Shown here in pieces: positions 42,026 to 43,708 of a stretch of 64,000 nt of DNA. A model generated the notes under the pieces. It was given only the letters and a program-made list of their open reading frames with translations, was not told the origin of the DNA and ran no database searches. Source of the stretch: Desulfosarcinaceae bacterium (GTDB lineage Bacteria > Desulfobacterota > Desulfobacteria > Desulfobacterales > Desulfosarcinaceae); contig JASJCL010000012.1 of assembly GCA_030066015.1 (NCBI GenBank), forward strand, positions 124,001-188,000, read 5' to 3'. Both the position numbers and the translations under genes were made by a program. The stretch's first letter is position 1; each line of letters begins with the position of its first letter.

Positions 42026-42391
42026 ATGAAAGCATTCCGAACACTGCTAGCGGTATTTAGCATCGTCATCATCAGCTACACCGGTGTGGTGGGCGCCCGG
42101 CACGGCTGGAACCTACTGCCCATCTTCTTCGGCGACATGGCGGCCATGACCTGGCCCGGACAATTCAATGTGGACATCATGTGCTTCCTGATCCTGGCGG
42201 GAGTGTGGATCGCCTGGCGTCACCAGTTCAGTGCCGGTGGGTTGGCCATGGGCGTCATTTGCGCGTTCCTCGGGATGATGATGCTGGCCCCCTATCTGCT
42301 GATCGCCAGCTTCATCGCCCGTGGGGACCTGATTGTGCTCTTGCTGGGAAAATCCCGCGCCGAACGGGCGACCCTGCTGCCATCGGCCTAG
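42026..42391 (+). CDS. Hypothetical membrane protein
   Basis: A 121-residue membrane protein with four hydrophobic segments (TLLAVFSIVIISYTGVVGA, LLPIFFGDMAAMTWPG, FNVDIMCFLILAGVWIAW, GLAMGVICAFLGMMMLAPYL). It resembles short uncharacterised membrane proteins that start MKxFRTxLAVF and contain a HGWNLxPxFF block. GGAAGGGAGG precedes the ATG at 42026. It is convergent with the MmyB-type regulator. No function assigned. Confidence 0.78.
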   Translation: MKAFRTLLAVFSIVIISYTGVVGARHGWNLLPIFFGDMAAMTWPGQFNVDIMCFLILAGVWIAWRHQFSAGGLAMGVICAFLGMMMLAPYLLIASFIARGDLIVLLLGKSRAERATLLPSA

Positions 42392-42401
42392 CCCGTCCGC
42401 C

Positions 42402-43247
42402 TCACCCGGCGCCGGCGGACGGGCGGCATGCCGGCGATCCTGCGGTCCGCTGCTGGAACCAGTGGCGGGTGATCTCATCGGCCGGAAAGAGAGACTCAAT
42501 GCGCAGCTCCTGGGCGGTTACATCCAGGGGGGTGCCGAAGGTGGTGATGGTGGAGAAGAAGCTGACTGTCAGCCCCTTCTTCTCCATGGCGAAACGCAGG
42601 ATGGGCAGCTGCTGGTCGATGGGATCTTCGGTCGGAACATCGCCATTGCACAGCTGGGTCATCTCCTCATACAAGGTGAAAAGCGCTTCGTGTTGGGAGG
42701 CCAGCGCCTCTGCCTGCAGGCGATTGAGCATAAACCGCGCCACCATGTCCCAATTTTTGAACGCGCTGCGCAGTCCATCTTTGGCGAAGGTGAGGCGATA
42801 GATGTTGGGATAGCGGCGCAGGGCCGCCTCGCCGGCGAACCAGGCGACCGTCTCGTCGAAGGCGCTGTTGGTCATCAGGATCTCGTGGGCGCTGTCGACC
42901 GCCAGTGCTGGATAGGGCTCATGCGTGTCCAAGACGCGCCGCAGGGTCTGGTGAACGAGGGCCATCTGCGCACCGTTCAGGGGCGTATGGCCGAATTCCG
43001 GCGCGAAACCGGCCGCCGTCAACAGGGAATTGCGTTGTCGCAGGGGCAGATCCAATGCAGCGCCGAGCCGCAGCACCAGCTCCCGGCTGGGGTGTGAGCG
43101 GCCATTCTCCACAAAGCTCAGGTGCCGTGGGGAGACATCCACCAAGAGCGCCAGATCCATCTGGCTGATCTTTCTGCGAGCACGCCAGTAGCGCAACATC
43201 TCTCCCAGCGGCTTGCCCGCACCCATGGTCGGCATCACTGCATGCAT
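42402..43247 (-). CDS. XRE-family transcriptional regulator with MmyB-like ligand domain
   Basis: A 281-residue regulator. The N-terminal helix-turn-helix covers about residues 14-70 (LGEMLRYWRARRKISQMDLA then LSFVENGRSHPSRELVLRLG). The rest is the PAS-like MmyB domain, with ALAVDSAHEILMTNSAF and the fatty-acid-binding pocket type NIYRLTFAKDGLRSAFKNWD. Such proteins usually control a divergent gene; here the divergent gene is the broken DUF2834 locus (43334), so the original target may be lost. Confidence 0.92.
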   Translation of the reverse strand: MHAVMPTMGAGKPLGEMLRYWRARRKISQMDLALLVDVSPRHLSFVENGRSHPSRELVLRLGAALDLPLRQRNSLLTAAGFAPEFGHTPLNGAQMALVHQTLRRVLDTHEPYPALAVDSAHEILMTNSAFDETVAWFAGEAALRRYPNIYRLTFAKDGLRSAFKNWDMVARFMLNRLQAEALASQHEALFTLYEEMTQLCNGDVPTEDPIDQQLPILRFAMEKKGLTVSFFSTITTFGTPLDVTAQELRIESLFPADEITRHWFQQRTAGSPACRPSAGAG

Positions 43248-43333: not shown

Positions 43334-43708
43334 ATGGCACGCGATAAACGCTTCTACCGGATCTGCGGTCTCATTGGCGCCATCGTCCCCTGGTGCTTCG
43401 CGGCCCCCTTCCTGGTGCGGACGGGCTTTAATCCGACCGTGCTGCGGCAAAGCCTCTTTGCCAACGGCGCGGCCGCCGGGTTTACGGCCGACCCGCTCAT
43501 CTCGGCTCTGGTGTTCTGGGTCTGATCTTATGACGATGCCAGGCGTCACGGCGTCACGCACTGGTGAGTGGTCCTGTTCGCCGGGGCCGTCGTGGGGTTG
43601 TCTTTGGCCCTGCCCCGCTATCTCTATCTGCGCCACGACGCCGAGGCCACCGTTCCTAGCATGCGGAATATTGGCAGTGTCGCCCCATATCTATTGACGG
43701 GACCCTGA
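43334..43708 (+). pseudogene. DUF2834 membrane protein gene with two in-frame TGA codons
   Basis: The ATG at 43334 (GGAGGG upstream) starts a DUF2834-type membrane protein (RFYRICGLIGAIVPWCFAAP, FANGAAAGFTADPLISALVFWV). The frame hits TGA at 43523-43525, but in the same frame homology continues as SYDDARRHGVTHW, hits a second TGA at 43565-43567, and goes on as VVLFAGAVVGLSLALPRYLYLR to a final stop at 43706-43708. DUF2834 proteins are continuous across both points. Two nonsense changes suggest a recent pseudogene; both are TGA, so readthrough or selenocysteine was considered but neither site is a known Sec position. Confidence 0.75.

What the first reader, a model, noticed from the sequence alone, without database searches (positions are those of the whole stretch)
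43334..43708. DUF2834 gene carries two in-frame TGA codons with coding homology on both sides
The frame stays readable across TGA 43523-43525 and TGA 43565-43567 without a shift, and the second half (VVLFAGAVVGLSLALPRYLY) is a good DUF2834 C-terminus. Both interruptions are TGA and none is TAA or TAG. A pseudogene with two point mutations is the simplest reading; TGA recoding is the exciting alternative, since sulfate reducers of this group often have selenocysteine machinery. The regulator gene beside it (MmyB type) is intact.
Basis: partly seen in the sequence, partly recalled or inferred. Interest (0 to 1): 0.6.

Follow-up and report, generated by a model that had tools for sequence, protein, structure and literature searches.

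The report
Broken membrane-protein gene, two Trp stops
A small membrane-protein gene beside its probable regulator has been switched off by two point mutations that turned conserved tryptophan codons into stop codons, and nothing suggests that the cell reads through them, so it is an ordinary broken gene.

Summary
One uninterrupted frame (43334-43708, +) encodes a DUF2834 membrane protein and holds TGA at 43523-43525 and 43565-43567, with clear homology before, between and after. Read through, it matches PF11196 at 1.4e-23 over residues 8-101.

Alignment shows what the TGAs replace. Both sit at Trp positions (W64 and W78). All six closest homologues (53-57% identical) have TGG at both, W78 is invariant in a 15-row alignment, and no homologue has Cys at either site. 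Each stop is one G-to-A change from TGG.

The genome does have selenocysteine machinery (tRNA-Sec, SelB) and other genes with in-frame TGA. Selenocysteine is still contradicted here: no Cys relatives, two UGAs in one short membrane protein, no SECIS-like hairpin at the second, and an unremarkable one at the first. Genome-wide UGA=Trp is excluded by normal TGA terminators and RF2. Both tRNA-Trp genes have anticodon CCA and an ordinary D-stem, and no suppressor tRNA was seen.

The frame also carries 11 private changes at columns invariant in its six relatives, including Val-to-Pro and Leu-to-Arg. Best reading: a recently inactivated pseudogene. Reads were unavailable, so assembly or strain-mixture error is not excluded.

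The parts
43334..43708 (+). DUF2834 pseudogene: one frame, no indel, two internal TGA
43523..43525 (+). first in-frame TGA, codon 64; TGG (Trp) in the six closest homologues
43565..43567 (+). second in-frame TGA, codon 78; Trp in all 15 rows of alignment A4 (this sequence read with TGA=W), TGG in the six closest
43334..43522 (+). what ordinary termination would make: 63 residues, first membrane segment and part of the second, third segment missing
   Evidence: placement of membrane segments is my inference from the sequence
42402..43247 (-). intact divergent regulator: HTH plus MmyB-like ligand-binding domain (PF17765), itself ending in TGA
42026..42391 (+). intact 121-aa small membrane protein, no NCBIfam match (nor Pfam for the longer ORF that holds it); homologues (70% and 56%) lie beside MmyB orthologues in two genomes of the order

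Best explanation
It is a recently inactivated gene. A DUF2834 small membrane protein, transcribed divergently from an MmyB-type regulator that probably controls it, acquired two G-to-A transitions in Trp codons (TGG to TGA at codons 64 and 78). Translation ends at the first TGA, giving a 63-residue product without the third membrane segment. The rest of the frame is still readable because little time has passed and no indel has occurred. Shown: the two TGAs, TGG at both places in relatives, no second copy found, no suppressor tRNA seen, and private changes at conserved positions. Inferred: regulation by MmyB, the order of the mutations and the loss of function.
For: Both TGAs align with Trp, and the six closest homologues have TGG at both; W78 is invariant in 15 rows. 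Of the 11 transition routes to a stop in the homologous core, 10 are in Trp codons and 5 give TGA, so two independent hits both giving TGA has a chance of roughly 5/11 x 4/10, about 18%, which is unremarkable. The sequence has 11 private changes at 50 columns invariant in the six relatives, including V>P at 54, P>F at 82 and L>R at 95; each of the others has 0-2. Its leave-one-out profile score is the lowest of the seven, 125 against 142-165 bits. TGA is a normal terminator: 25 of 49 long ORFs in the window end in it, the adjacent regulator ends in it, and RF2 is present (517.8 bits). The gene is patchily kept: 3 of 97 relatives, 6 of 389 in the class, 14 of 395 in the phylum, each count including this genome. 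Another genome of the phylum has a frame-shifted copy.
Against: There is no indel or TAA/TAG, and the frame keeps coding-like codon bias and most of its conserved residues, so it is either young or still under some selection. The private changes are partly explained by distance: the six comparison sequences come from another group (mostly Alphaproteobacteria), so the control is not matched. Reads and transcripts could not be examined.
Confidence: 0.86

Rival explanations
1. Assembly, polishing or strain-mixture error: the organism has TGG at one or both places and the gene is intact.
For: The genome is a 155-contig draft; only two single-base differences are needed.
Against: Two independent G-to-A errors 42 bases apart in one short gene, with no other clear case in the window by a coarse codon-bias scan, whose top hits looked like frames antisense to real genes. 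Several conserved positions are also changed, which two base errors do not explain.
Confidence: 0.08
2. UGA is read as Trp here, by leaky near-cognate tRNA-Trp or an unseen suppressor, so that some full-length protein is made.
For: Both UGAs stand exactly at Trp positions, which is what UGA=Trp would give. The frame is otherwise open.
Against: Every TGG-to-TGA pseudogene looks the same. Both tRNA-Trp genes have anticodon CCA and a C11-G24 D-stem, not the G24A change of the known Hirsh suppressor. The only UCA anticodon seen is that of tRNA-Sec. Other Trp codons in the gene are TGG. Two leaky stops in series would give very little product. RF2 is present.
Confidence: 0.04
3. Selenocysteine insertion at one or both UGAs.
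For: tRNA-Sec and SelB are encoded, and molybdopterin-oxidoreductase genes with one in-frame TGA exist in this genome. A hairpin with a GGC loop lies 24 nt after the first TGA, like one in a probable selenoprotein gene (L074, 23 nt).
Against: No relative has Cys at either position. A GG-loop hairpin at 20-27 nt follows 111 of 1200 ordinary codons of this window, 16 of them at least as stable. The second TGA has none. Folding of the first is no better than shuffled sequence (z -0.17).
Confidence: 0.01

Closest known systems
DUF2834 (Pfam PF11196) small membrane proteins
   Same: Whole-domain match in one frame, 53-57% identity to alphaproteobacterial members
   Different: Two conserved Trp codons are TGA; Pro, Phe and Arg at conserved hydrophobic or Pro positions
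Ordinary bacterial pseudogenes by nonsense mutation
   Same: Two single-base transitions, sense codons in relatives, normal use of TGA as stop
   Different: Nothing unusual, apart from both stops being TGA at Trp, which is a likely outcome in this gene
Bacterial selenoproteins such as formate dehydrogenase
   Same: In-frame TGA in a genome with tRNA-Sec and SelB
   Different: No Cys homologues, two UGAs, no convincing SECIS

Membership tests
DUF2834 (PF11196) | profile match above the curated cut-off over the whole domain | tested here: met
   83.3 bits against 22.9, positions 2-95 of 96, read with TGA=W; 73.3 bits from six-frame DNA with stops read through
DUF2834 (PF11196) | intact reading frame able to make the protein | tested here: not met
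   two internal TGA codons
pseudogene | sense codons at the stop positions in homologues | tested here: met
   TGG in six of six closest homologues at both positions
pseudogene | relaxed constraint outside the stops | tested here: inconclusive
   11 private changes at invariant columns against 0-2, but the comparison is not matched for phylogenetic distance
selenoprotein | tRNA-Sec and SelB in the genome | tested here: met
selenoprotein | Cys (or Sec) at the same position in homologues | tested here: not met
   Trp mostly, otherwise Phe or Tyr; never Cys
selenoprotein | bacterial SECIS hairpin just downstream of the UGA | tested here: not met
   absent at TGA2; at TGA1 a hairpin of a kind that follows 9% of ordinary codons; no Rfam match of note
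UGA=Trp code or suppression | tRNA-Trp with UCA anticodon or known suppressor change | tested here: not met
   both tRNA-Trp have CCA and C11-G24; the tRNA list of 38 may be incomplete
UGA=Trp code or suppression | TGA not used as terminator, RF2 lost | tested here: not met
   25 of 49 long ORFs end in TGA; prfB present

The most novel reading that the evidence does not exclude
The two UGAs are decoded as Trp at low level, so that full-length DUF2834 protein is made only when UGA readthrough is high, a conditional switch in a gene controlled by an MmyB regulator.
Probability: 0.03. Interest if true: 0.5.

Novelty: already known. Interest (0 to 1): 0.1.

Why it matters
It matters little in itself: gene loss by nonsense mutation is routine. 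It is a useful caution that paired in-frame TGAs in a genome with selenocysteine machinery need a check of what relatives carry at those positions. Trp codons are one transition from TGA, so decaying Trp-rich membrane proteins mimic recoding.

Tried and rejected
A second intact DUF2834 copy in the genome: none found. A conserved in-frame TGA in relatives: none in the class or phylum samples. SECIS: a loose definition fits 113 of 150 random TGAs and is useless; a stricter one fits 9% of ordinary codons. A suppressor tRNA: none seen. Plasmid homologues: two, both under 60% identity, not informative. DUF2834 papers: two hits in the held library, neither on function by title; not read. Promoter and terminator scan: nothing. 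DNA-level relatives of the region: only short pieces at roughly 67-88% identity, none over the DUF2834 gene. The first alignment translated L003 on the wrong strand and was replaced by A3 and A4. A look at the top hit of the codon-bias scan was made in a wrong frame; the ORF list was used in its place.

Full report
Observation. The frame 43334-43708 on the + strand has exactly two internal stops, both TGA, at codons 64 and 78, and no shift. Read with TGA as Trp it is a full-length DUF2834 protein (PF11196, 1.4e-23, residues 8-101). The search of the whole genome with the family finds this copy only and counts '2 TGA' inside. Codon bias is positive in this frame (0.27 per codon) and negative or near zero in the other five, so it is a former or present coding frame and not chance.

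What the TGAs replace. The scan of species genomes returned ten homologues; the six closest are 53-57% identical and mostly alphaproteobacterial by record title. All six have TGG at both positions. With relatives from the same family and phylum added, codon 78 is Trp in all 15 rows, and codon 64 is Trp in most and Phe in the rest. In a second set the alternatives are Phe and Tyr. Cys never occurs. Each stop is therefore one transition away from TGG.

Is two TGA at two Trp surprising? In the homologous core there are 11 transition routes to a stop, 10 of them in five Trp codons, and 5 of the 11 give TGA. Two random transition hits would both give TGA in roughly 18% of cases (5/11 x 4/10). That both stops are TGA is not evidence for recoding.

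Selenocysteine. At this gene the case fails: no Cys homologue, two UGAs, and no SECIS beyond background. The hairpin after TGA1 has a GGC loop 24 nt downstream, resembling one after a TGA in the formate-dehydrogenase-like locus L074, but a GG-loop hairpin in that range follows 111 of 1200 ordinary in-frame codons, 16 of them at least as stable. TGA2 has none. Folding z-scores of the 50 nt from each TGA are -0.17 and -2.05; the latter structure has no loop of the right kind at the right distance.

Tryptophan decoding. TGA terminates 25 of 49 long ORFs of the window and also the neighbouring regulator. RF2 is present at 517.8 bits. ARAGORN on the tRNA loci found two tRNA-Trp genes, both CCA, and no UCA anticodon other than tRNA-Sec. 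In both the D-stem has C11-G24 (positions counted by me), so the classical G24A (Hirsh) suppressor change, known to me from general knowledge, is absent.

Relaxed constraint. At 50 columns invariant among the six closest homologues this sequence differs at 11, against 0-2 for each of them in the same test; the changes include V54P, P82F and L95R, and the leave-one-out profile score is the lowest. Part of this is phylogenetic distance, so I count it as suggestive.

Neighbourhood. The divergent MmyB-type regulator is intact and has about 50%-identical orthologues in several genomes of the order. In G024 (L002/L083) and in a gammaproteobacterial contig (L013) a DUF2834 gene lies divergently beside such a regulator. 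In G043 and G014 the divergent gene is a more distant DUF2834-like protein that also has Trp at what look like the two places. The small membrane protein at 42026-42391 recurs beside the regulator in G043 and G095 at 70% and 56% identity. The cluster is thus a recurring regulator with small membrane proteins, and here one of them is broken.

Verdict. An ordinary recent pseudogene is by far the best reading. Base-call or strain-mixture error remains possible because reads are not available. Readthrough as Trp cannot be excluded at low level but has no positive support.

Noticed in passing
42026-42391 (+) with 42402-43247 (-): A 121-aa membrane protein without a Pfam or NCBIfam match recurs beside MmyB-type regulators in other genomes of the order (L079, L082): a regulator/small-membrane-protein cluster that I could not name.
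   Followed up: partly
L063:143-220: ARAGORN reports a tRNA-like gene with a four-base anticodon (ctct) in the same genome (C107), a possible eight-base anticodon loop.
   Followed up: no
L074 and L076: Molybdopterin-oxidoreductase genes with one in-frame TGA each in this genome, probable formate dehydrogenase selenoproteins.
   Followed up: partly
L096 (G519:C113): DUF2834 gene split between two frames in another genome of the phylum, a frameshifted copy.
   Followed up: partly
L012:5067-5069: DUF2834 frame of a Chloroflexi MAG holds one internal TAG, another interrupted copy.
   Followed up: no
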